Counted from the first letter of the stretch, positions 24,857 through 50,552 are shown. The stretch: 64,000 bases of DNA from Solirubrobacterales bacterium (GCA_009691195.1 SHVA01000007.1:1-64000), one strand, 5' to 3'. A program made the numbers and translations. The notes: generated from the sequence alone by a model not told the origin.

Positions 24857-25996
24857 TCATCTCAATTTCGGTAGGCCGAGGACACGTTCTGCCACGATGT
24901 TCTTCAGGACCTCGGTGGTGCCGCCCTCGATCGAGTTGGCCCGGGAGCGCAGAAAGCGGTAGGTCCACTCCTCGCCATCGACGGCGGCCGCCGGACCGAG
25001 CACGTCCATGGCCAGCTCGCCCAGCTCCTGGTTGACGCTCGCCCACTCCCACTTGCCGAGCGAGCCCTCGGGGCCTGGGATCCCCGCCTTCATCGTCCGG
25101 GTCAAGGTCCGCATGCCGCCCAGCCGCAGCGCCTCCACGCCCATCTTGAGCCTGGCGACTCGGTCACGGACCATCGGGTCTTCGGCCAGCCCGCGCTCGC
25201 GGATGAGGGCGATCAGATCATCGAGCGAGTTGCTGACGCTGATCGCCGCCGCAGCCCCGAGGCCGGCGCGCTCGAACATCAGGGTGGTGATCGCGACCTG
25301 CCAGCCGCCGCCGACCTCGCCGACGACGTTCTCGTCGGGCACGTAGGCATCCTCGAAGAAGATCTCGTTGAACTCGGCCTCGCCGGTGATCTGGCGAAGC
25401 GGGCGGACCTCGACGCCGTCGGCCTCCATATCGAAGATGAAGTAGGTGATGCCCCGATGCTTGGGAGATTCGGGGTCGGTGCGGGCGAGCAGCATGCACC
25501 ACTTCGCCTCGTGGGCGTAGGTGGTCCAGACCTTCTGGCCCGTGATCCTCCAGCCCCCGTTCGACTTGACCGCCCTGGTCTTCAGCGAGGCGAGGTCGGA
25601 GCCCGAATCGGGCTCCGAGAAGCCCTGGCACCAGATCTCCTCGCCGGAGAGGATCGGCTCGAGGTAGCGCTCCTTCTGCTCGGTGTCGCCGTGGGCGATC
25701 ACGACCGGGCCGCCCATGACCAGGCCGAGCACGTTGGCGGGCATCGGCGCCCTGGAGAGTGCCAGCTCCTGGTTGAAGATCGACTGCTCGATCATGCTGG
25801 CGCCGCGGCCGCCGTACTCCTCGGGCCAGGAGAGGCCTGCAAAGCCGGCCTCGTGCATCGTCTTCTGCCAGCCGCGGCGGAACTCGAACTCGGCGTCGTC
25901 GCCGGCAACCGGCGCGGCGCCGGGGTTGTTCTGTTCGAGCCAGCCCCGGATCTCGTCCCGGAAAGCCTGCTCGGAAGTCGTCAGGGTCAGATCCAC
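24857..25996 (-). CDS. Acyl-CoA dehydrogenase (first of a pair)
   Basis: 379 aa acyl-CoA dehydrogenase. Features: WPEEYGGRGASMIEQ, QGFSEPDSGSDLASLKTRA, WITGQKVWTTYA-like region, and the C-terminal SIEGGTTEVLKNIVAERVLG. I chose GTG at 25996 (VDLTLTTSEQAF) because the frame upstream lacks family similarity and TAGGCT lies 8 nt upstream, a leaderless arrangement. It is followed at 4 nt by the second dehydrogenase, and both probably form a heteromeric enzyme. It reduces its FAD while introducing a 2,3-double bond into acyl-CoA; electrons pass to ETF. Confidence 0.9.
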   Translation of the reverse strand: MDLTLTTSEQAFRDEIRGWLEQNNPGAAPVAGDDAEFEFRRGWQKTMHEAGFAGLSWPEEYGGRGASMIEQSIFNQELALSRAPMPANVLGLVMGGPVVIAHGDTEQKERYLEPILSGEEIWCQGFSEPDSGSDLASLKTRAVKSNGGWRITGQKVWTTYAHEAKWCMLLARTDPESPKHRGITYFIFDMEADGVEVRPLRQITGEAEFNEIFFEDAYVPDENVVGEVGGGWQVAITTLMFERAGLGAAAAISVSNSLDDLIALIRERGLAEDPMVRDRVARLKMGVEALRLGGMRTLTRTMKAGIPGPEGSLGKWEWASVNQELGELAMDVLGPAAAVDGEEWTYRFLRSRANSIEGGTTEVLKNIVAERVLGLPKLR

Positions 25997-26093: not shown

Positions 26094-26506
26094 GTGTACG
26101 AACGGGATGCAGAGACCATGCGCGACGCCCTCGAGGCCCTGGTCGAGAGCGGCGTCGAGGCGATGCTCGCCTACGTCGCGGATGATTTCGAGATGATCAC
26201 GCCCGCCGGACTGGCCGCGGAGCCGGACACCTATACGGGCCACGACGGACGGGCCACGACGGCCTCCGGCGCTGGTGGTCCAGCTTCGAGGAGATCATGG
26301 ACGACGTGCGCGTCGAGTTCACCGACGTCGAGCCCACCGGCACGGACGGGGTCCTGCTGACGTCCGTACGGCTGTCCGCCCGTGGACGGGCGACGGGCAT
26401 CGAGCTGACCCAGGAGGCCCATGCGCGCTGCGCGATCGCCGGCTCGAAGGTCGTCTCCCTTTCTTTCTTCGCCAGCCGCGACGAGGCGAGGGCTGCGAGG
26501 CCCTAG
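26094..26506 (+). pseudogene. NTF2-like/SnoaL-like protein, frameshifted by a 14-bp tandem duplication
   Basis: The 5' part reads VYERDAETMRDALEALVESG then MLAYVADDFEM, the start of a ketosteroid-isomerase-like (NTF2) fold. The 3' part, in another frame from about 26263, reads LRRWWSSFEEIMDDVRVEF and continues to the stop at 26506. A near-perfect 14-bp duplication at 26236-26262 lies exactly at the break; removing one copy gives a continuous YTGHDGLRRWWSSFEEIM. The restored protein would be about 132 residues. The start (GTG 26094) is tentative. The stop overlaps that of the convergent UbiA gene. Confidence 0.65.
26236..26262. repeat. 14-bp tandem duplication causing a frameshift
   Basis: CGGGCCACGACGG recurs with a 14-nt period (26236-26249 and 26250-26262). 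Fourteen is not a multiple of three, so the NTF2-like reading frame is lost. Deleting one period rejoins two segments of one protein. Confidence 0.88.
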
Positions 26507-27444
26507 CCGTAGATCGCCAGCAGGGCGACGACGGTCCCGACCCAGACAATCGCGGCGCCGATCATTCCCGGGTCCTCGGCCACGATCTCGGCGGTGGAGC
26601 GGGTGTCCTTGCGATCGTAGATCAGGTAGAGGTAGCGGAAGATCCCGTAGACCACGGGTGGCAGCGAGGCGAGCATCTTCGAGCCGATGTTGGGGGAGTT
26701 GACCGCGTAGATCGCGTAGCTCATCACGGTGGTGGCGGTGACCATCGCCACCATCTGGTCGAGGAAGGGGATCGAGTAGTGCTCGAGTACCGGCCGGGTG
26801 CTCGTCCCGGAGTGAAGCTCAGAGGTCGCCTCCTGCCGGCGCTTTGTGAAGCCGAGGAACATGGCGACCATCCCGGTGCAGAGCAGCAGGAACGCCGAGG
26901 CGTCGGCGTTGACGGCGACGGCTCCCGCCAGGACCCGGAGCACGAACAGCCCCGCGATCGTCATCACGTCGAGGATGACCTCGGTCTTGAGCAGGTACGA
27001 GTAGAGCGTGGTGCCGACGCCGTAGGCGAGCACGAGGCCGCCGATGACGGGGCCCTCGAGCGCGATCGCCCCGGCGAGGCCGACCAGGACCAGCGCCACC
27101 GCGAGCATCACGGCGGTGCGCTTGCTCAGCTCGCCGGCGGCGATCGGGCGTCGCCGCTTGGTCGGATGCTGTCGGTCGAGCTCGGCGTCGTGTGCGTCGT
27201 TGATCAGGTAGCCGGCGGAGGCGACCGCGCAGAAGGCGGCGAAGGTGACCGTCGCAGCGACGATCGCGTCGAGCTCATCGAACTTGCCCGAGAACAGCAG
27301 TCCCGCGTAAACGAGCAGGTTCTTGATCCACTCCTGCGGGCGCATGGCGACGATCGCCGCCTTCAGCGGCCCCCGTCTCGGCTTCACGGCAGCGCCGTCG
27401 GCACCGCCGCTGCCCTCACCGCGCTCCTTCAAAGCAGTCGCCAT
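26503..27444 (-). CDS. UbiA-family prenyltransferase, decaprenyl-phosphate phosphoribosyltransferase-like
   Basis: 313 aa with about nine membrane helices. The polyprenyl-binding signature NDAHDAELDRQHPTKRRRP (NDxxDxxxD) and MRPQEWIKN near the N-terminus match Rv3806c-type decaprenyl-phosphate phosphoribosyltransferase, the enzyme that transfers phosphoribose to decaprenyl phosphate for arabinan precursors. Residues 1-28 are a charged tail. It is third in an operon behind the fatty acyl reductase and the alkyl-DHAP-synthase homologue (45 nt gap). Archaeal ether-lipid UbiA enzymes belong to the same superfamily, so a lipid-linked role other than arabinan synthesis is possible, but the detailed motif favours the phosphoribosyltransferase group. 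Confidence 0.82.
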   Translation of the reverse strand: MATALKERGEGSGGADGAAVKPRRGPLKAAIVAMRPQEWIKNLLVYAGLLFSGKFDELDAIVAATVTFAAFCAVASAGYLINDAHDAELDRQHPTKRRRPIAAGELSKRTAVMLAVALVLVGLAGAIALEGPVIGGLVLAYGVGTTLYSYLLKTEVILDVMTIAGLFVLRVLAGAVAVNADASAFLLLCTGMVAMFLGFTKRRQEATSELHSGTSTRPVLEHYSIPFLDQMVAMVTATTVMSYAIYAVNSPNIGSKMLASLPPVVYGIFRYLYLIYDRKDTRSTAEIVAEDPGMIGAAIVWVGTVVALLAIYG

Positions 27445-27489
27445 GAACCGAGGATCGTAGAGCGCGAGGCTGCCGCAGCCCGGCTGAAC

Positions 27490-29175
27490 CTAGCTGCGCT
27501 CGGGATCGACGAGTACCCCCGGGTTGAGGATCCCGCCGGGGTCGAGTTTCACCTTCGCCGCGCGCAGGGCGTCGGCGAACGGCTGCGGCCGCTGGCGGTC
27601 ATACCAGGGACGGTGGTCACGGCCGACCGCGTGGTGGTGGGTGATGGTGCCCCCCGCCTCGATCAGCGCCTCCGAGACAGCCGCCTTGACCTCATCCCAC
27701 TGCTCGACCTCGCTGCCTCGCCTCGCCGGCGCCAAGACCGTGTAGTAGGGAGCGGGCCCGTCCGGGTACACGTGCGTGAAGCGGCAGCCCACCCGCGGCG
27801 ATCCTGGCCCCTCGGCCGGGGCGCCCGAGGCCTCGGCGGCGGCGCGGCGCGCCGTCCCGATCACCTCGTCATGGAACCCAGGGAAGCGGTCCCAGGTGAT
27901 CGCGGTCTCGAAGGTGTCGGAGAGCACGCCGCAGGCGGCCATCGAGTCGCGCAGGTAGGGCGCGTTGAGGAACGCGGACCGCCAGGCATCGACGGGGTCG
28001 CCGCCCGAGGCAGGCGGCGGCCCATTGCGCGCGGTGGCTCCCGGGTCGTCGGGCTTGCGCTCGTCCCCGGGGCTCCGGCTGCGAAGCTCGCCCGGCTTGC
28101 CGCCGTGCTCGGTCGCGACCTCGAGCGCCAGCCGCATCGGCTCGTCAACCGGGTGGTGGGCTGACTCGAAGCCGAGCAACAGCAGCGCCTTGCCCGGGGG
28201 CCCGGCACTGGTGATCGCCGACTCCCCCGGATCGAGCAGGCGGCAGTTGGCCGGATGCAGACCGGACTGGGAGAGCTCGCGGACGGCCTCGGCTCCGGAG
28301 AGGAAGTCGTCGAAGGCGACCCCCACCGAGATCCGCCGGCGAGGCCGCTCCTGTACCCGCATCCAGGCTTCGACGATGACGCCGAGAATTCCCTCTGAGC
28401 CGAGCATCATCCGGTCGGGGCTGGGCCCGGCGCCGGACCCCGGCAGCCGGCGGCTGGCCCACTCCCCGCTCGGGGTGACCACTCGCATCGACTCGGTCAG
28501 GTCGTCAACGTGGGTGTAGAGCGTCGCGAAGTGGCCGCCGGCACGGGTCGCGAGCCAGCCGCCGAGCGTCGAGTACTCGAAGGACTGGGGGAAGTGGCGC
28601 AGCGTCACCCCGTGCTCGCGGAGCTGCTGCTCGAGCCGCGGCCCGGTGGCGCCCGCCTGGATCCGCGCCGCGCGGGAGACGGGGTCGAACTCGAGCACTC
28701 GGTCCATGGAGCGAAGGTCAATAGACACCGTTCCCCGATAGTCGTCGGCCACGCGGGGCTCGACGCCGCCGACGACGCTGGTGCCGCCGCCGAACGGGAT
28801 CGCAGCCGCCGCCTGGTCGGCGCACCAGGCCAGCACGGCGTCCACGTCCTCGGGCGATTCGGGCCTGGCGACCAGGTCGGGCGGATTGTCGATGCGGCCC
28901 CTGAAGCCCCGCCAGATGTCACGCGACGCCTTGCCCATCGAGTGCGAGGCGCGATCGTGACGCCCCGCCGAGAAGAGCGTGGCCATCTCCTTGGGCGGCT
29001 TCAGCCTGGGCTTGGGGAGCTCGATTCGCGCCAGGGGCACCGGCTCCTCGATCTCGTCCACCTTGAAGCCGAGGCGCTCATGGACGACTTTGGCGATCCC
29101 CTCCAACCCCTTGCGGTCGGGCTGCTGGTCCTCATAGCCCCACCCCCACCACTTCAGACGGCGCCCCTGGTGCAC
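27490..29175 (-). CDS. FAD-binding oxidase, alkyldihydroxyacetonephosphate synthase-like
   Basis: 561 aa with N-terminal RRLKWWGWG (a hallmark of alkyl-DHAP synthases), an FAD_binding_4 domain (about 100-280, PFGGGTSVVGG), and the C-terminal catalytic THHHAVGRDHRPWY, which matches the His-rich active site of AGPS. The C-terminus KVKLDPGGILNPGVL is the family's FAD-linked oxidase ending. AGPS exchanges the acyl group of acyl-DHAP for a fatty alcohol, forming the ether bond. The upstream neighbour, 8 nt away, is a fatty-alcohol-forming reductase, which supports that function. A low-complexity Pro/Gly insertion lies near residues 380-405. Glycolate oxidase-like enzymes are the alternative. Confidence 0.85.
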   Translation of the reverse strand: MHQGRRLKWWGWGYEDQQPDRKGLEGIAKVVHERLGFKVDEIEEPVPLARIELPKPRLKPPKEMATLFSAGRHDRASHSMGKASRDIWRGFRGRIDNPPDLVARPESPEDVDAVLAWCADQAAAAIPFGGGTSVVGGVEPRVADDYRGTVSIDLRSMDRVLEFDPVSRAARIQAGATGPRLEQQLREHGVTLRHFPQSFEYSTLGGWLATRAGGHFATLYTHVDDLTESMRVVTPSGEWASRRLPGSGAGPSPDRMMLGSEGILGVIVEAWMRVQERPRRRISVGVAFDDFLSGAEAVRELSQSGLHPANCRLLDPGESAITSAGPPGKALLLLGFESAHHPVDEPMRLALEVATEHGGKPGELRSRSPGDERKPDDPGATARNGPPPASGGDPVDAWRSAFLNAPYLRDSMAACGVLSDTFETAITWDRFPGFHDEVIGTARRAAAEASGAPAEGPGSPRVGCRFTHVYPDGPAPYYTVLAPARRGSEVEQWDEVKAAVSEALIEAGGTITHHHAVGRDHRPWYDRQRPQPFADALRAAKVKLDPGGILNPGVLVDPERS

Positions 29176-29183
29176 GCCAGGCC

Positions 29184-31202
29184 CTACCAGTGCACGCCCC
29201 TCATCAGGTACGCGAAGGCGACCCCCTCCGATGAGAGCTCCTCCTGCTTCTCCTTGACGGGCTTGCCCTCGGCGTCCTTCTTGCCCTTCGCCGCGCCCGA
29301 CTCCGGGAACAGCTTGTAGGCGGTGTTGAGGATCGCGTCCGAGGCCTTTGGGGCGACGTTGTAGAGCAGCTCTCCGAAGTTGCCGAGCCGAGTCGCGACC
29401 TTCTTGGGCTTGCGGACCATCGCGTCGGTGATCATGTCCGCCGCCTCCTCCGGCGTGATCGTCGGAAAGGCGTCGTACATCTTGGTGGGGGCGATCATCG
29501 GGGTCCGCACCAGCGGCATGTGGATAGTCGTGATGCTGACCCCGTCATCGAGCAGCTCGCTGGCGGCGCAGCGCGACCAGGCATCAAGGGCGGCCTTGGA
29601 GGCTACGTAGGCCGAGAAGCGGGGCGTGTTCGTCTGCACCCCGATCGAGCTGACGTTGATGATGTGGCCGCCCTTGCGGCCCTTGCTGCGCTTTCTCATG
29701 GTCGGCAGCAGGCTCATGATCAGCTTCAGCGAGCCGAAGTAGTTGAGCTGCATCGTCCGCTCGAAGTCGTGGAAGCGGTCGTAGGAGAGAGCGATCGAGC
29801 GCCGGATCGAGCGGCCGGCGTTGTTGACCAGGACGTCCACGCGGCCGTGCTCCTCCAGCACCTCGTTCGCCATCCGCTCGACGTCCTCGATCTCGGAGAG
29901 GTCGGCGCGATGGATGTGGGCCTCGCCCCCTGCCTCCTCGATCTCCTCCCGGGTCTCCTCGAGCTTCTCGGGCGTGCGAGCGACCAACAGCACCTTCGCC
30001 CCTGCGGCCGCCGCCTTGACCGCCGCGGCCTTGCCGATCCCGGAGGAGGCGCCGGTGATCAACACCGTCTTGCCGCCGATCGCCCCCGACAGCGAGCGGT
30101 CCTTGAACAGGTCCGGGTCGAGGTTGCGCTCCCAGTAGTCCCAGAGCTTGTCGGAGTAGGCGGGCAGCGGCGGCACGCTGATGTCGGTGCCCTTGAGCGC
30201 CTCCTGGGTGTTGGTCGAGTCGAAGCTGGTCGGGTAGTTGATGTAGACGAGCACCTCGCGTGGGATGCCGAGGTCAGCCAGGACCTGGTCGGTGATCCGC
30301 TTCACCGGCGGCAGCATCTGCAGCCCGCTCCGCACCTGCTTGGGAATGAAGTCGATCATCTTCGAGTCGATCCGCATCGTCGCCTCGGGGGCATGGGCCG
30401 CCTTCGCGAAGGCGTTGATGACCTGGCCCGCGCTGAGCGGCTTCGGGTCGGTGAGGTGGAAGACCTTGCCGTCGAGGCCGTCGCGGTGGGCGATGTGGTC
30501 CATCGACTGCGCCACGAAGTCGACCGGGACGAGGTTGATCTCACGCCCCTCGATGCCGACCCCCGGGAACCACTGGGGCACGAGGTCTCGCGCCCGCTGG
30601 ATCAGCTTGAAGAAGTAGTAGGGCCCATCGACCTTGTCGATCTCACCGGTCTCGGAATGCCCGACGACGATCCCGGGCCGATAGACCCGCCAGGGCACCT
30701 CCGACTCGTCCCTGACCACGGCCTCCGACTCGTGCTTGGTGGCGAAGTAGGGGTGGTTGTCGAGCTTGGTCGCCTCGTCGAACATGCCCTCGGTGAAGGT
30801 GCCCTCATAGAGCCCGGCGGCGGCGATCGAGCTGACCATGTGGAAGTGCTTGGCGTCGATCGCGCCGGCGAGCTCGACCGCGTTCCTGGTGCCCTCGACG
30901 TTCGCGACCCGCTGGCTCTCGGCGTCGGCGGTCATGTCGTAGATCGCTGCGAGGTGGAAGCAGTGGTCGACGTTGCCCCTGAGCTCGGCGACCTGGTCGG
31001 TGCAGCCGAGGTTCTCGTGGGAGAGGTCGCCGACGACGGGAACGATCCGCCCTTCCTCCGCGCCCCAGCGATTGCGCAGCTCCTCCAGCCGGCCGCGCGA
31101 ACCGTCGCGCACCAGCACGTAGATCGTTCCCTCCCGCTCGAGCAGCTGCTCGACCAGATTCCGACCGATGAAGCCGGTCGCCCCCGTGACGAAGTAGCTC
31201 AT
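29184..31202 (-). CDS. Two-domain fatty acyl-CoA/ACP reductase (alcohol-forming, Marinobacter FAR type)
   Basis: 672 aa with two Rossmann domains. The N-terminal extended SDR (1-370) starts MSYFVTGATGFIGRNLVEQL and contains FHLAAIYDM and YFATKHESE. The C-terminal classical SDR (about 378-640) has TGASSGIGKAAA, NNAGRSIRRSIALSYDRFHD and YVASKAALDAW. Order, length and motifs such as YWERNLDPDLFKDR at the junction match the Marinobacter fatty acyl reductases that reduce acyl-CoA or acyl-ACP to primary alcohol with NADPH. It heads the operon with the AGPS homologue, its likely consumer of fatty alcohol. ATG 31202 follows AGAGGAGAG-like sequence. Similarity is by my recall of the family, not by alignment. 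Confidence 0.88.
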   Translation of the reverse strand: MSYFVTGATGFIGRNLVEQLLEREGTIYVLVRDGSRGRLEELRNRWGAEEGRIVPVVGDLSHENLGCTDQVAELRGNVDHCFHLAAIYDMTADAESQRVANVEGTRNAVELAGAIDAKHFHMVSSIAAAGLYEGTFTEGMFDEATKLDNHPYFATKHESEAVVRDESEVPWRVYRPGIVVGHSETGEIDKVDGPYYFFKLIQRARDLVPQWFPGVGIEGREINLVPVDFVAQSMDHIAHRDGLDGKVFHLTDPKPLSAGQVINAFAKAAHAPEATMRIDSKMIDFIPKQVRSGLQMLPPVKRITDQVLADLGIPREVLVYINYPTSFDSTNTQEALKGTDISVPPLPAYSDKLWDYWERNLDPDLFKDRSLSGAIGGKTVLITGASSGIGKAAAVKAAAAGAKVLLVARTPEKLEETREEIEEAGGEAHIHRADLSEIEDVERMANEVLEEHGRVDVLVNNAGRSIRRSIALSYDRFHDFERTMQLNYFGSLKLIMSLLPTMRKRSKGRKGGHIINVSSIGVQTNTPRFSAYVASKAALDAWSRCAASELLDDGVSITTIHMPLVRTPMIAPTKMYDAFPTITPEEAADMITDAMVRKPKKVATRLGNFGELLYNVAPKASDAILNTAYKLFPESGAAKGKKDAEGKPVKEKQEELSSEGVAFAYLMRGVHW

Positions 31203-31599: not shown

Positions 31600-34500
31600 A
31601 TGGCGAGTAACGGGAACCTGCAGGTCGTGATGCCCGAGATGGGAGAGTCGGTCACCGAGGGGACCGTGCTCGAGTGGCACGTCGCCGAGGGCGACACCGT
31701 CGAGGAGGGCCAGACCGTCGTCGAGGTCTCGACCGACAAGGTCGATGCCGAGGTCCCCGCCCCCGCTGCGGGCACGATCACCAAGCTCTGCGTCGAGCCC
31801 GACGAGACGATCGAGGTCGGCAAGCCACTGGCGGAGATTGACCCGACAGGCGGAGCAACCGCCGTGGATGCCGAAGCCGTCCAAGCTGAGGATGGGGCCG
31901 CCGCCAAGGGCGCCGCGGCGGGGGCGGAGGCGCCGGTCGCCGGCACTGCCACCGCCGCGAGCGGCGACGATCCCACCAGGGCTACGCCGGTGGCGCGCCG
32001 AGTCGCCGCCGTAAGCGGCGTCGAGCTGAGCGGCCTCAAGGGCTCCGGGGCGGGCGGCAAGGTGACCAAGGGCGACGTGCTGGCCGCCGGCCAGGGCGGC
32101 AACGGCGCCGCGGCGCCGCAGCCCGGGGCACTTGGCGAGGAGGAGGCGAAGCCCCTGCGTGGGCCCGCGGCGGCGGTCGCGAAGGCGATGAACGAGAGCC
32201 GCCAGATTCCCACTGCGACGTCATTCCGCACGCTTCCCGTGGACGCGCTCGACGCCAAGCGCAAGGCGCTGAACGGCGTGCTCAGGGAGCGCGGGATGAA
32301 GGTCAGCTTCACCCACCTGGTCGCATGGGCGATCGTCAAGGCGGCGCAGGAATGGTCGGTGATGGCGCGCAGCTTCGACGAGCGGGACGGCAAGCCGTTC
32401 GCGGTGCAGCCCGCCAACGTCAACCTCGGGATCGCGGTGGACGTGGAGCGCAAGGGCTCGCGCAGCCTGATGGTCCCCTGCATCAAGGGGGCCGACGGGC
32501 TCGACTTCGCCGGGTTCCACTCCTACTACGAGGACCTGATCACCAAGACGCGCCACAACAAGCTGACCGCGGACGACTTCCAGAGCACGAACATCACCCT
32601 GACCAACCCCGGCGGCCTCGGCACGGTGGCCTCGGTGCCGCGCCTGCTCGCCGGCCAGGGCACGATCGTCGCCACCGGCTCGATCGCCTACCCGCCGGAA
32701 TGGGCCAACGCGAGCCCCGAGCGGATCAAGGCTCTCGGCGTCTCCAAGGTGATGACGATGACCTCGACCTACGACCATCGGGTCATCCAGGGCGCCGAGT
32801 CGGGCTCGTTCCTGCGCCGGATCGAGCAGCTCCTCGCCGGCCAGGACGACTTCTATGAGACCGTCGCCGCCAACCTCGGCGCCGACCCGGGCATCGTCAC
32901 CAACGCCCATCCCGCCTCGGCCTCCGCGGCGCCGGTCCCCTCCAGCTCGTCCCCCAGCTCGCCGCCGAGCCAGGAGCTGCTCCAGGCGGTCCAGGCGGCG
33001 ACCTCGCTGCTGAAGGCCTACCGGACCCACGGGCACCTCTCCGCCCGGCTGGACCCGCTCGGCTCAGAGCCGAAGGGCGACCCCGCGATTCAGCCCGAGA
33101 ACCTCAACCTGACCCCCGAGCTGATGTCCCAGGTGCCCGCCGAGATCCTGCGGATCGGGGTCGAGGGGGAGACCCTGCTCGAGGCGCTGCCGCGAATGCG
33201 CGAGGCCTACTGCGGCACGATCACCTACCAGATCGAGCACCTCTCCTCCCATCAGCAGAGGATGTGGCTGCGCGACATGATCGAGCACGGAACGCATCGT
33301 GAGCCGCTCTCACCCCAGGAGAAGCGCTCGCTGCTCGAGCGGCTGATCGAGGTCTTCGGCTTCGAGCGCTATCTCGAGAGGGCCTACCTCGGCCAGAAGA
33401 TGTTCTCGATCGAGGGCCTGGACGCAACGGTGCCGATGCTCGACCTGCTCTTCACCCTGGCCCAGCGCGACGGCGCCAAGGAGGTCGAGATCGGCATGGC
33501 CCATCGCGGCCGCCTCAGCGTGCTCGCCCACAACCTCGGCCGCTCGGAGGAATCGATCATGGCCGAGTTCGAGGGCGCCAAGGCGATCGAGGCGGTCAAG
33601 GCGGTGGCGGCAATCCCGAGCGGGGGGACCGGCGACGTCAAGTACCACTACGGCCACGACGGCACCTTCGTCACCCGCGACGAGATCGAGATCGGCGTTC
33701 ACCTTTACCCGAACCCGAGCCACCTCGAGTTCGTTGACCCGGTCGTGACCGGTGCCGCCTACGCCGCTCAGACGACGCAGGAGAAGTCGAAGCTGGAGCA
33801 CGACACCTCGGCCGCCCTCCCCGTGCTGCTGCACGGCGACGCCGCCTTCCCCGGACAGGGGGTCGTGGCCGAGACCCTCAACCTGCTCGCGATCGAGGGC
33901 TACGCGACCGGCGGCAGCATCCACATCATCCAGAACAACCAGATCGGGTTCACGACGGAGCCGCGAGAGGGCCGCTCGACCCCCTACGCCGCCGACATGG
34001 CGAAGGGCTTCAACGTGCCGATCGTCCACGTCAACGCCGACGATCCCGAGGCCTGCCTCGCGGCGATCCGCCTCGCGATGGCCTACCGCCGGCGCTGGGG
34101 CCGGGACGTCGTCATCGACGTGGTCGGATACCGGCGCTACGGACACAACGAGACCGACGAGCCGGCATACACCCAGCCCGTGATGGCGGCCAAGATCAAG
34201 GACCACCCGCCGGTGAGCCAGATCTACGCCGATGCGCTGATCGCCGAGGGCATCGTGGACGCCGCCGACGTCGAGGCGAAGAAGGAGCAGCGCCAGAGCG
34301 AGTTGCGCGCCGTCCACGAGGAGCTGAGGACGAAGATCGAGGCCGGCGAGTACGAGGACCCGACGGCCACCGGCACCGGCGAGCTCGACCGGACCCGCAG
34401 CCCCAGCGTCGAGACCGACGTCGACGAGCGGGTGCTTCGGGACCTCAACGAGGAGCTGCTCAGGGTCCCCGACAGCTTCGCCACCCACCGCAAGCTTCGC

Positions 34501-35586
34501 AAGCCCCTGGGCAAGCGCCGCGAGGCGATGGACGAGGGAGGGATCGAGTTCGGTCACGCCGAGGCGCTGGCCCTCGCGACGCTGCTGCGCGAGGGCGTCC
34601 CGATCCGCTTCACGGGCCAGGATACCGAGCGCGGGACCTTCTCCAACCGCCACCTCGCGCTCCACGACGAGAAGACTGGCCTTCGCTACGCCCCGATCGA
34701 GCACCTCGCCGCCGCCGAGGCGCCGATCGAGCTCCACAACAGCCCCCTCTCAGAGGCCGCCTGCCTCGGGTTCGAGTACGGGTATTCGGCCGCCTCGACC
34801 GACAGCCTGGTCCTCTGGGAGGCGCAATTCGGCGACTTCGCCAACTCGGCGCAGGTCATCATCGACAGCTTCATCGCCTCGGGCGAGGCGAAGTGGGGGC
34901 AGATGACCCGGCTGACGTTGCTGCTGCCCCACGGCTACGAGGGCGCCGGCCCGGAGCATTCGAGCGCCCGGATCGAGCGCTTCATCCAGCTCGCGGCCGA
35001 GGGGAACATGCGGCTGGCCAACCCGACCACGGCGGCCCAGTACTTCCACCTGCTGCGCCGCCAGGCGCGAATCGCGAAGGCCCGGCCGATGGTCGTCTTC
35101 ACCCCCAAGGGCCTGCTGCGGCTCCCCCGGGCCACCTCGACGCTCGAGGACCTGGCCTCCAGCTCCTTCCAGTTCGTCCTCGACGACCCGCGCAAACCGG
35201 ACCCCGACAAGGTCACACGCCTGGTCCTCTGCAGCGGCAAGGTCTACTACGACATGGAAGCGGCGCCCAAGCGCGAGGAGGCCGACTCGGTCGCGATCGC
35301 GCGGGTCGAGCTCCTCTACCCCTTCGCCAAGGAGCAGCTCTCGGAGCTGATCGCCGGCTACCCCCAGCTCAAGGAGATCGTCTGGGTGCAGGAGGAGCCG
35401 CGCAACATGGGCGCCTGGAGCGTGATGCAGCGCCGGATGCCCGAGATGCTCCCGACCGGCGCCGACTTCGGCTACGTCGGCAGGCCCTCACGGGCGAGCC
35501 CCGGCGAGGGTTACCCGGTCGCCCACACCAAGGAGCAGGAGAGGATCGTCCTCACCGCCCTGATGGGCAAGGCCGACCCGGCCTAG
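31600..35586 (+). CDS. kgd: Fused 2-oxoglutarate dehydrogenase E2-E1 (Kgd/OdhA type) with N-terminal lipoyl domain
   Basis: 1328 aa. Domain order: lipoyl domain (about 6-82, lipoyl-lysine K47 in STDKVDAE), Ala-rich linker, peripheral subunit-binding domain (about 127-163, PVARRVAAVSGVELS), acyltransferase domain (about 185-430, catalytic His in YDHRVIQGAESG at 391-402), linker, and the thiamine-diphosphate E1 component (about 460-1328, with HGDAAFPGQGVVAETLNL and AHRGRLSVLAHNLG). Mycobacterial Kgd and corynebacterial OdhA fuse a lipoyl-less E2 core to E1. Here the lipoyl and binding domains are retained, so one chain carries all E1 and E2 parts. ATG 31600 has only a weak AAGGCGG site. It converts 2-oxoglutarate to succinyl-CoA with an E3 encoded elsewhere. 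Confidence 0.93.
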   Translation: MASNGNLQVVMPEMGESVTEGTVLEWHVAEGDTVEEGQTVVEVSTDKVDAEVPAPAAGTITKLCVEPDETIEVGKPLAEIDPTGGATAVDAEAVQAEDGAAAKGAAAGAEAPVAGTATAASGDDPTRATPVARRVAAVSGVELSGLKGSGAGGKVTKGDVLAAGQGGNGAAAPQPGALGEEEAKPLRGPAAAVAKAMNESRQIPTATSFRTLPVDALDAKRKALNGVLRERGMKVSFTHLVAWAIVKAAQEWSVMARSFDERDGKPFAVQPANVNLGIAVDVERKGSRSLMVPCIKGADGLDFAGFHSYYEDLITKTRHNKLTADDFQSTNITLTNPGGLGTVASVPRLLAGQGTIVATGSIAYPPEWANASPERIKALGVSKVMTMTSTYDHRVIQGAESGSFLRRIEQLLAGQDDFYETVAANLGADPGIVTNAHPASASAAPVPSSSSPSSPPSQELLQAVQAATSLLKAYRTHGHLSARLDPLGSEPKGDPAIQPENLNLTPELMSQVPAEILRIGVEGETLLEALPRMREAYCGTITYQIEHLSSHQQRMWLRDMIEHGTHREPLSPQEKRSLLERLIEVFGFERYLERAYLGQKMFSIEGLDATVPMLDLLFTLAQRDGAKEVEIGMAHRGRLSVLAHNLGRSEESIMAEFEGAKAIEAVKAVAAIPSGGTGDVKYHYGHDGTFVTRDEIEIGVHLYPNPSHLEFVDPVVTGAAYAAQTTQEKSKLEHDTSAALPVLLHGDAAFPGQGVVAETLNLLAIEGYATGGSIHIIQNNQIGFTTEPREGRSTPYAADMAKGFNVPIVHVNADDPEACLAAIRLAMAYRRRWGRDVVIDVVGYRRYGHNETDEPAYTQPVMAAKIKDHPPVSQIYADALIAEGIVDAADVEAKKEQRQSELRAVHEELRTKIEAGEYEDPTATGTGELDRTRSPSVETDVDERVLRDLNEELLRVPDSFATHRKLRKPLGKRREAMDEGGIEFGHAEALALATLLREGVPIRFTGQDTERGTFSNRHLALHDEKTGLRYAPIEHLAAAEAPIELHNSPLSEAACLGFEYGYSAASTDSLVLWEAQFGDFANSAQVIIDSFIASGEAKWGQMTRLTLLLPHGYEGAGPEHSSARIERFIQLAAEGNMRLANPTTAAQYFHLLRRQARIAKARPMVVFTPKGLLRLPRATSTLEDLASSSFQFVLDDPRKPDPDKVTRLVLCSGKVYYDMEAAPKREEADSVAIARVELLYPFAKEQLSELIAGYPQLKEIVWVQEEPRNMGAWSVMQRRMPEMLPTGADFGYVGRPSRASPGEGYPVAHTKEQERIVLTALMGKADPA

Positions 35587-42714: not shown

Positions 42715-42846
42715 AATCGCATAGGTAATGCCGAGTCACGCTGGTCCATCCGGACGTGAACGGGGGAACCAAAGATCTGGGGCGAACCCATAGTGGGGCG
42801 CAGGCTCCTTCAGCGCCAGCCCGTCAGCTAACCCCGTAGGCCGACA
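42715..42846 (+). ncRNA. c-di-AMP riboswitch (ydaO/yuaA motif)
   Basis: The conserved blocks of the ydaO motif are recognisable in order: AACGGGGGAACCAAAGATCT, TGGGGCGAAC, and the 3' signature CCGTCAGCTAACCCCGTAGG. They lie directly before the ribosome site and GTG of a secreted NlpC/P60-like gene. In actinobacteria this riboswitch typically turns off cell-wall hydrolases when c-di-AMP is high. Exact 5' end is approximate. Confidence 0.88.
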
Positions 42847-42859
42847 GAGGAGAACCGCA

Positions 42860-43414
42860 GTGCGTTCATTCAGGAACCACAGGATCGCCAGGATCGCCGC
42901 GCTCGCGGTCGGCGTCGGTGCCCTGATGGCCCCTCCCGCCTTCGCCGGCAGCGGCGGCACCGGGGTCCCCGGGACCGATCCGGTCCAGACGGGCCCCCCT
43001 GGCAAGGCGAAGCTGCTCAAGAACGGGATGGCGGTCGCGCCCTCGAACGCCCCCCAGCGCGTGATCAACGCGATCGAGGCTGCCAACCGGATCCGCAAGA
43101 AGCCCTACATCTGGGGCGGCGGTCACCGCAGCTGGGAGGCCAAGGGCTACGACTGTTCCGGAGCCGTCAGCTACGCGCTGCACGCCGCCAAGATGCTGAG
43201 CACGCCGACCCCCTCGGGCCCGCTGATGAAGTGGGGCGAGAAGGGCATGGGACGCTGGATCACCGTCTACGCCAACGGCGGTCACACCTACGCCGTGATC
43301 GCGGGCCTGCGCTGGGATACCTCGGCGATGGGCTCGGGCGGCAACGGTCCTCGCTGGCGCGCCGCCAAGCGCTCGCCCGGCGGCTTCGCCGTTCGCCACT
43401 TCCCGAACTTCTAG
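42860..43414 (+). CDS. Secreted NlpC/P60-like peptidoglycan hydrolase
   Basis: 184 aa with a signal peptide (IARIAALAVGVGALMAPPAFA) and a C-terminal papain-like domain: YIWGGGHRSWEAKGYDCSGA with the nucleophile Cys, and the HTYAVIAGLRWDT region with the His. GTG 42860 follows GAGGAG. It is a small single-domain member, shorter than RpfA/RipA-type proteins and without cell-wall-binding repeats. Control by the c-di-AMP riboswitch fits a role in wall remodelling under turgor or osmotic regulation. Confidence 0.88.
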   Translation: MRSFRNHRIARIAALAVGVGALMAPPAFAGSGGTGVPGTDPVQTGPPGKAKLLKNGMAVAPSNAPQRVINAIEAANRIRKKPYIWGGGHRSWEAKGYDCSGAVSYALHAAKMLSTPTPSGPLMKWGEKGMGRWITVYANGGHTYAVIAGLRWDTSAMGSGGNGPRWRAAKRSPGGFAVRHFPNF

Positions 43415-49931: not shown

Positions 49932-50552
49932 CTACACCTCCATGGGCCTCACCACAAGCGACTCGATCTCGATCCCGAGCTCGGCCGCGAGCTCGCGCGC
50001 CACCAGGGAGCGCGCTCGCTCCAGGTCCATATTTGGATCCCGGATCAGGCAGCGGACGCCGAACCCGTCGATCAGCGCCATGGTCGTCCTCGCCGCCGCC
50101 TCGGTGTCAACCCCGCTGCGAAACTCGCCACTCTCGACCCCGGCGCGGATCACGCTCTGCATCCATTCGCTGTAGCGGCCGTAGAGGCGCACCGCGACCG
50201 GGCGCAGCTCGGGCGAGCGAACGGCCCTGAGCCAGAGCTCGACCCAGAGCACCCAGCCACGCTCCTGGGCGCCGGGCAGCGGCAGGCACTCGTCGATCGC
50301 CTCGGCGAGGGCGCCGGTGGCCGTCCGCGACTCGGGATCGTCGCCGAAGCGCTCGTCGCCGACCTGTTCGTAGGAGTGGACCAGCGCCTCCTCGAGCAGC
50401 TCCTCGCGGGTGGAGAAGTAGTGGTGAACGAGCGAGGTCGAGGCCCGGGCCCGGGTCGCGACGCGGGCGATCCTGACCGCGTCGATCCCGTCGGCGGCGA
50501 TCAGGTCACAGGCGGCCTCGAGGATCCGGGCTCGTGCGTCGGTCGCGGCCAC
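49932..50552 (-). CDS. TetR-family transcriptional regulator
   Basis: 206 aa. HTH: GIDAVRIARVATRARASTSL then VHHYFSTREELL, with a C-terminal TetR ligand-binding domain related to BetI (RSPELRPVAVRLYGRYSEWM). BetI-like regulators control choline and betaine genes, which is of interest given the upstream Rieske oxygenase of quaternary-amine type. GTG 50552, 33 nt after the oxygenase stop. Two TetR genes in tandem are unusual; they may act on different operators or as a heterodimer. Confidence 0.87.
   Translation of the reverse strand: MAATDARARILEAACDLIAADGIDAVRIARVATRARASTSLVHHYFSTREELLEEALVHSYEQVGDERFGDDPESRTATGALAEAIDECLPLPGAQERGWVLWVELWLRAVRSPELRPVAVRLYGRYSEWMQSVIRAGVESGEFRSGVDTEAAARTTMALIDGFGVRCLIRDPNMDLERARSLVARELAAELGIEIESLVVRPMEV

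What the first reader, a model, noticed from the sequence alone, without database searches (positions are those of the whole stretch)
26503..31202. Operon joining a fatty-alcohol-forming reductase to an alkyl-DHAP synthase homologue: bacterial ether-lipid synthesis
The two-domain reductase would make fatty alcohol, which AGPS enzymes insert into acyl-DHAP to make the ether bond. The genes are 8 nt apart, with a UbiA lipid-phosphate enzyme third. Ether lipids in actinobacteria are little characterised, and a linked FAR-AGPS pair gives a simple genetic basis.
Basis: partly seen in the sequence, partly recalled or inferred. Interest (0 to 1): 0.65.

Follow-up and report, generated by a model that had tools for sequence, protein, structure and literature searches.

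The report
Fatty-alcohol reductase paired with AGPS-like flavoenzyme
Actinobacteria of the order Solirubrobacterales carry a conserved gene pair, a fatty-alcohol-making reductase next to a flavin enzyme that resembles the ether-bond-forming enzyme of animal lipids, but this flavin enzyme belongs to a sister branch that lacks one part of the real one, so ether-lipid synthesis is possible rather than shown.

Summary
The three genes are real and correctly placed. The pair is a conserved operon: FAR lies beside the AGPS-like gene in 11 of 15 sampled genomes of the window's own family, 9 of them within about 55 nt. It is lineage-specific: 0 of 19 genomes from sister families that hold both genes have them linked.

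FAR is a full PRK07201-type two-domain reductase; an actinobacterial FAR of similar size (M. tuberculosis FCR1) makes fatty alcohol. The flavoenzyme has the AGPS fold (TM 0.82) and the main AGPS catalytic residues.

It is not an AGPS orthologue, however. It falls in a separate clade (100/100) that includes the mycobacterial AgpS position, lacks about 26 residues of the AGPS cap (probably the gating helix), and has no DHAP-acyltransferase partner. Characterised AGPSs group with other paralogues: clade B, elsewhere in this genome, and a type in five related genomes that in three forms an AGPS-acyltransferase-epimerase operon like the myxobacterial ether-lipid operon.

Five wax-ester-synthase genes offer another use for the alcohol, and the UbiA looks like a decaprenyl-phosphate phosphoribosyltransferase. 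Ether-lipid synthesis by this pair is plausible (about 45%), not established.

The parts
29184..31202 (-). Two-domain fatty acyl-CoA reductase (FAR), 672 aa: extended-SDR NAD_binding_4 domain + classical SDR domain
   Evidence: PF07993 5-234, PF00106 378-572; PRK07201 959.9 bits, cut-off 549; both GxxGxxG and YxxxK motifs invariant in family members; Shine-Dalgarno-like GGAAGAGGAGAGG before ATG
27490..29175 (-). AGPS-superfamily flavoenzyme, clade A (includes the mycobacterial AgpS position next to fprA and prfB), 561 aa, GTG start
26503..27444 (-). UbiA-family membrane enzyme, decaprenyl-phosphate phosphoribosyltransferase-like, 313 aa
   Evidence: PRK12324.1-2 218.8 bits vs 234; PRK12324.1-4 207 vs 207; 8j8j 118.5 bits; with FAR and AGPS-A in most family-f1 loci
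24857..25996 (-). Acyl-CoA dehydrogenase 1; downstream in the conserved block, about 500 nt from UbiA here, directly after AGPS-A in L043, L045, L046
23833..24852 (-). Acyl-CoA dehydrogenase 2, paired with the first
31600..35586 (+). Divergent lipoyl-E2-E1 2-oxoglutarate dehydrogenase fusion gene; anchors AGPS-A's position across the order

Best explanation
A conserved, family-restricted operon in Solirubrobacterales. FAR reduces fatty acyl-CoA to fatty alcohol with NADPH (strongly inferred from family membership). The flavoenzyme is a sister-clade relative of AGPS that keeps the AGPS active site: catalytic Tyr477, Arg312, Arg409, His194 and HHH513-515. It most likely uses the AGPS chemistry, in which oxidised FAD forms an N5 adduct with the C1 of a DHAP-type ester, the acyl group leaves, and the FAR-made alcohol takes its place to give a 1-O-alkyl product (inferred). 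It works like an AGPS, but the missing cap segment implies a different entry to the tunnel or a different acyl/alkyl substrate. UbiA's link to this chemistry is unexplained. No step has been shown in this organism.
For: Best PDB sequence and fold matches are all AGPS (TM about 0.82 for 4bby chains vs at most 0.67 for D-lactate dehydrogenase). Residues named as important for catalysis in Dictyostelium AGPS (R352, R447, Y508; PMC3509576) are all present (R312, R409, Y477). Tyr, HHH and the first Arg are invariant in 85 of 85 clade-A rows, and the set is absent from own-genome GlcD-like proteins. FAR adjacency holds in 11 of 15 genomes of the family across at least 8 genera. An actinobacterial FAR of similar size makes fatty alcohol (FCR1/Rv3391, PMC3522743).
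Against: Characterised AGPSs group with the other bacterial paralogues, not with clade A; the split is 100/100 with a branch of 0.88. Clade A has 25 residues where AGPS has 51-52 and clade B 43-44, and the AF2 model runs straight from a short helix to the strand there. Clade A is widespread with no FAR neighbour in Mycobacterium, Streptomyces, Myxococcota and Binatota, groups that I know (from memory, not checked) mostly as not making alkyl ethers. FAR and AGPS-A each occur without the other. No PlsB/GNPAT-sized acyltransferase was found in the 93%-complete genome, only smaller PF01553 proteins.
Confidence: 0.45

Rival explanations
1. FAR supplies fatty alcohol for wax esters made by WS/DGAT enzymes; the clade-A flavoenzyme does a different, broadly conserved job, and the adjacency arose when FAR moved to the sucAB-AGPS-A junction in the ancestor of one family.
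For: Five WS/DGAT genes in the own genome, one about 8 kb from the clade-B paralogue. FAR relative FCR1 is a wax-ester enzyme in M. tuberculosis (PMC3522743). AGPS-A sits next to sucAB across the order, while FAR lies elsewhere in other families. In G005 FAR stays at the sucAB/acyl-CoA-dehydrogenase site although AGPS-A lies on another contig.
Against: Operon-like spacing kept in 9 of 15 genomes across many genera. The retained AGPS catalytic residues fit use of a fatty alcohol.
Confidence: 0.35
2. The flavoenzyme is an FAD-linked 2-hydroxyacid (D-lactate/glycolate-type) dehydrogenase that only resembles AGPS.
For: Same VAO-type domains; weaker hits to glcD and D-lactate dehydrogenase. The missing cap segment makes it more like those simpler enzymes.
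Against: AGPS hits are far stronger in sequence and fold. The AGPS Tyr/Arg/HHH set is present and is absent from the own-genome GlcD-like proteins. The glcD model scores far below its cut-off (112 vs 568 bits).
Confidence: 0.12
3. UbiA + FAD oxidase + SDR form a polyprenyl-phosphate sugar pathway, as in mycobacterial decaprenyl-phosphoryl-arabinose synthesis (UbiA/DprE1/DprE2).
For: UbiA is decaprenyl-phosphate phosphoribosyltransferase-like.
Against: The FAD protein has no PDB match to DprE1 at E<=0.001 and has the FAD-oxidase_C domain of AGPS-type enzymes. The SDR protein is a two-domain FAR, not a DprE2-type single SDR.
Confidence: 0.04

Closest known systems
M. tuberculosis AgpS (Rv3107c) and its actinobacterial/myxobacterial orthologues
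   Same: Clade-A members at 51-57% identity; in Mycobacterium loci L123, L135, L154, L156, L157 the gene lies next to FprA and PrfB, the gene order I know (from memory) for Rv3107c-Rv3106-Rv3105c. Same clade in the tree.
   Different: Mycobacterial copies have no FAR or UbiA neighbour; no paper found assigns them a measured reaction.
Eukaryotic alkylglycerone-phosphate synthase (PDB 4bby, 2uuu)
   Same: Fold, FAD domains, catalytic Tyr, two Arg, His, HHH.
   Different: 29-31% identity, separate clade, about 26-residue cap segment missing, Asp303 replaced by Gln.
M. xanthus MXAN_1676-1675-1674 operon (AGPS, FAR1+GNPAT-like, NAD-epimerase)
   Same: An AGPS-family gene next to a FAR (PMC9131029).
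   Different: MXAN_1676 is about 42% identical to human AGPS and comes with a GNPAT-like domain and an epimerase. The window has neither. An AGPS-acyltransferase-epimerase set appears instead in related genomes G124, G196 and G077.
FCR1/Rv3391 and Marinobacter MAQU_2220 fatty acyl-CoA reductases
   Same: Similar size (650 aa for FCR1) and reductase type; FCR1 makes fatty aldehyde and alcohol (PMC3522743).
   Different: Linked to wax esters, not to an AGPS-like gene. Their sequences were not at hand, so the relationship was not measured here.
Decaprenyl-phosphate phosphoribosyltransferase (PDB 8j8j)
   Same: Best family and structure match of the UbiA protein.
   Different: Scores just under or at curated cut-offs; no DprE1/DprE2 in the locus.

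Membership tests
AGPS (alkyl-DHAP synthase, EC 2.5.1.26) | FAD_binding_4 + FAD-oxidase_C domains and AGPS fold | tested here: met
AGPS (alkyl-DHAP synthase, EC 2.5.1.26) | Catalytic Tyr, two Arg, His300 and HHH motif | tested here: met
   residues Y477, R312, R409, H194, H513-515
AGPS (alkyl-DHAP synthase, EC 2.5.1.26) | AGPS-specific cap segment, probably the gating helix | tested here: not met
   25 residues against 51-52; AF2 shows no such helix; that this segment is the gating helix is inference
AGPS (alkyl-DHAP synthase, EC 2.5.1.26) | Groups with characterised AGPS in a tree | tested here: not met
   clade A against {eukaryotic AGPS + other bacterial paralogues}, 100/100
AGPS (alkyl-DHAP synthase, EC 2.5.1.26) | DHAP acyltransferase (GNPAT) available | tested here: inconclusive
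   Only small PF01553 proteins in the genome, none in the locus; genome 93% complete
AGPS (alkyl-DHAP synthase, EC 2.5.1.26) | Alkyl-DHAP synthase activity | not testable with these tools
   needs biochemistry
Two-domain fatty acyl-CoA reductase (PRK07201) | NAD_binding_4 + SDR domains, both YxxxK motifs, above the equivalog cut-off | tested here: met
Two-domain fatty acyl-CoA reductase (PRK07201) | Fatty-alcohol formation | not testable with these tools
   shown for FCR1/Rv3391 (PMC3522743), not for this protein
Decaprenyl-phosphate phosphoribosyltransferase | Score above the NCBIfam equivalog cut-off | tested here: inconclusive
   218.8 vs 234 and 207 vs 207; best PDB match 8j8j
Myxobacterial-type AGPS operon (AGPS-acyltransferase-epimerase) | Acyltransferase and NAD-epimerase directly after AGPS | tested here: not met
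   absent in the window; present in G124, G196, G077
Plasmalogen/ether routes via CarF or PlsA/Ger | PF10520 or PF09989 protein in the genome | tested here: not met
   none found; for PF10520 no control genome rang, so that absence is weak

The most novel reading that the evidence does not exclude
AgpS-A enzymes, widespread in actinobacteria including mycobacteria and of unknown function, are a second class of flavin-dependent ether-bond synthases with a different substrate entrance. The FAR-linked operon in this Solirubrobacterales family would expose their alcohol substrate and imply overlooked ether lipids across Actinomycetota.
Probability: 0.25. Interest if true: 0.75.

Novelty: new variant of a known kind. 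Interest (0 to 1): 0.42.

Why it matters
The AgpS-A clade is found in many actinobacteria, including mycobacteria, under the name alkyl-DHAP synthase without a demonstrated reaction that I could find. A conserved operon with a fatty-alcohol-forming reductase is a genetic clue to its second substrate and gives a two-gene set that can be tested. Separating clade A from true AGPS also cautions against predicting ether lipids from AGPS homology alone, as metagenomic screens do. The AGPS-acyltransferase-epimerase operon found in related genomes is a better target for ether-lipid analysis in this order.

Tried and rejected
Rejected: AGPS orthology of the window gene (tree; cap segment). Rejected: DprE1-type pathway (no DprE1 match). 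Rejected: UbiA as an ether-forming DGGGP-synthase relative (26 bits to 6m31 against 119 to the phosphoribosyltransferase). Rejected: Archangium violaceum as a stand-in for MXAN_1676; its only hit is clade A and its neighbours are unrelated. A first quick tree had misread frames for two rows and was replaced by a careful one. The primary AGPS structure paper is not held. Literature searches found no lipid analysis of Solirubrobacterales that reports alkyl ethers. The promoter/terminator scan was uninformative.

Full report
OBSERVATION. The window carries three minus-strand genes at the stated coordinates: FAR 31202-29184, AGPS-like flavoenzyme 29175-27490 (GTG start, 8 nt after the FAR stop), UbiA 27444-26503 (45 nt further). 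FAR has a good Shine-Dalgarno-like sequence; the 8-nt junction does not. FAR scores 960 bits against the PRK07201 equivalog (cut-off 549) and has NAD_binding_4 plus SDR domains; its Y152/K156 and Y532/K536 motifs are invariant in relatives. The flavoenzyme's best solved relatives are alkyl-DHAP synthases from Dictyostelium and guinea pig (237 and 189 bits), ahead of glycolate/lactate-type enzymes (at most 90 bits). The UbiA protein is closest to decaprenyl-phosphate phosphoribosyltransferase.

CONSERVATION. The window is contig C55 of a 2.3-Mb, 60-contig, 93%-complete genome. Most named close relatives are Solirubrobacterales (Thermoleophilia) MAGs. In 199 genomes of the class, FAR and the flavoenzyme (clade A below) lie next to each other in 11 of the 15 members of the window's own family, at about 8-55 nt in 9 and about 470-540 nt in 2. 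The exceptions are G005, G180, G198 (on different contigs) and G093 (no clade-A gene). In sister families of the order I count 19 genomes with both genes and none with them linked, including complete or near-complete contigs where they lie hundreds of kilobases apart. Layout in the family: sucAB <-> FAR > AGPS-A > (UbiA) > acyl-CoA dehydrogenases <-> citrate synthase. Across the order AGPS-A is anchored next to sucAB, so FAR appears to have been placed between them in one lineage (inference). G005 keeps FAR and the acyl-CoA dehydrogenases at this site although its AGPS-A lies on another contig.

WHAT THE FLAVOENZYME IS. Active site: guinea-pig AGPS H300, R419, R515, Y578 and H615-617 correspond to H194, R312, R409, Y477 and H513-515. 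Dictyostelium R352, R447 and Y508, reported important for catalysis (PMC3509576), are all present. Y, HHH and R419 are invariant in 85 of 85 clade-A sequences; GlcD-like proteins of the same genome lack the set. The AlphaFold2 model (pLDDT 86, pTM 0.88) matches AGPS structures first (TM about 0.82 for the 4bby series; best D-lactate dehydrogenase 0.67).

WHY IT IS NOT SIMPLY AGPS. Two or more AGPS-like paralogues exist in most genomes of this order. A maximum-likelihood tree puts the window protein in clade A (30 rows, 100/100, branch 0.88), on the other side of a split from eukaryotic AGPS and all other bacterial paralogues sampled. Clade A includes the mycobacterial gene next to fprA and prfB, which I recognise as the Rv3107c (agpS) locus (locus identity from memory). 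Clade A has 25 residues between Arg312 and the FES motif, against 51-52 in eukaryotic AGPS and 43-44 in clade B; the model shows no helix of that kind there. I infer this is the gating helix of the AGPS cap described in PMC3509576; the primary structure paper is not held. Asp303 of AGPS is Gln in clade A and in most of clade B.

OTHER PARALOGUES. Clade B of this genome (C31:10386-11987) aligns end to end with AGPS at 293 bits and lies downstream of proS-pgsA genes (with ispG ahead of them in related genomes) and near a WS/DGAT gene. Related copies elsewhere sit next to glpD and a TetR gene. A third, eukaryote-like type (39% to Dictyostelium, 37% to guinea pig AGPS; Asp303 and the cap segment kept) occurs in G124, G196, G107, G077 and G053. 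In G124, G196 and G077 it is followed at once by a PlsC-type acyltransferase and an NAD-epimerase, much like M. xanthus MXAN_1676-1675-1674 (PMC9131029), minus the FAR1 domain. That operon, not the window's, is the strongest ether-lipid candidate in this order. It was not found in the window's genome.

PATHWAY CONTEXT. The genome has five WS/DGAT genes, so fatty alcohol has an obvious use in wax esters, as for FCR1/Rv3391 (PMC3522743). It has five PF01553 acyltransferase hits but none of PlsB/GNPAT size, no CarF (weak: no control rang) and no PlsA/Ger-type DUF2229 (controls rang). FAR is present in about 15 order members that lack clade A, and clade A is present in two without FAR, so the two are not obligately coupled.

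MECHANISM AND VERDICT. Most likely FAR makes a fatty alcohol and the clade-A enzyme carries out AGPS-type acyl-for-alkyl exchange through a flavin N5 adduct, on DHAP-type or related esters, with a substrate entrance that differs from AGPS (45%). The chief rival is that FAR serves wax esters and the adjacency is a lineage accident (35%). Shown here: gene content, linkage, family membership, active-site conservation, clade separation and cap difference. Inferred: both reactions, the coupling, and any ether lipid. Its conclusion is possible, but it overstates AGPS identity and novelty, since a FAR-AGPS linkage is already known in myxobacteria.

Noticed in passing
L067:8001-11427 (G124:C9), L271 (G196), L273 (G077); partly L272 (G107), L274 (G053): Eukaryote-like AGPS followed by a PlsC-type acyltransferase and an NAD-epimerase in related Solirubrobacterales, much like the M. 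xanthus MXAN_1676-1674 ether-lipid operon. In G107 only the acyltransferase is adjacent (divergent); in G053 the AGPS stands alone.
   Followed up: partly
L057:7986-9608 (own genome C31:10386-11987): A second AGPS-like paralogue (clade B), closer to true AGPS, downstream of proS-pgsA genes and near a WS/DGAT gene; in other genomes relatives sit beside glpD and a TetR regulator (L059, L065, L072, L073).
   Followed up: partly
window 42719-42857 (+): c-di-AMP riboswitch (Rfam RF00379, 65.7 bits) directly upstream of a small secreted NlpC/P60-like gene at 42860-43414 (Pfam match below cut-off).
   Followed up: no
window 31600-35586 (+): 2-oxoglutarate dehydrogenase fusion with lipoyl, E3-binding, E2 and E1 domains in one 1328-aa protein.
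   Followed up: no
window 50266-50357 (+): ARAGORN tRNA-Ala (cgc), 92 nt, lies inside a TetR-like gene on the other strand (49932-50552) and folds no better than shuffles; almost certainly spurious.
   Followed up: yes
L077 (own genome C3:47661 region): PlsC-type acyltransferase and glycerol-3-phosphate dehydrogenase (GpsA) domains lie in one open frame, possibly a fusion.
   Followed up: no
L235-L238, L245 (FAR loci of family f3): In family f3 the FAR gene converges with a block of SRPBCC-like, acyltransferase-like and NAD-epimerase-like genes conserved in five genomes.
   Followed up: no
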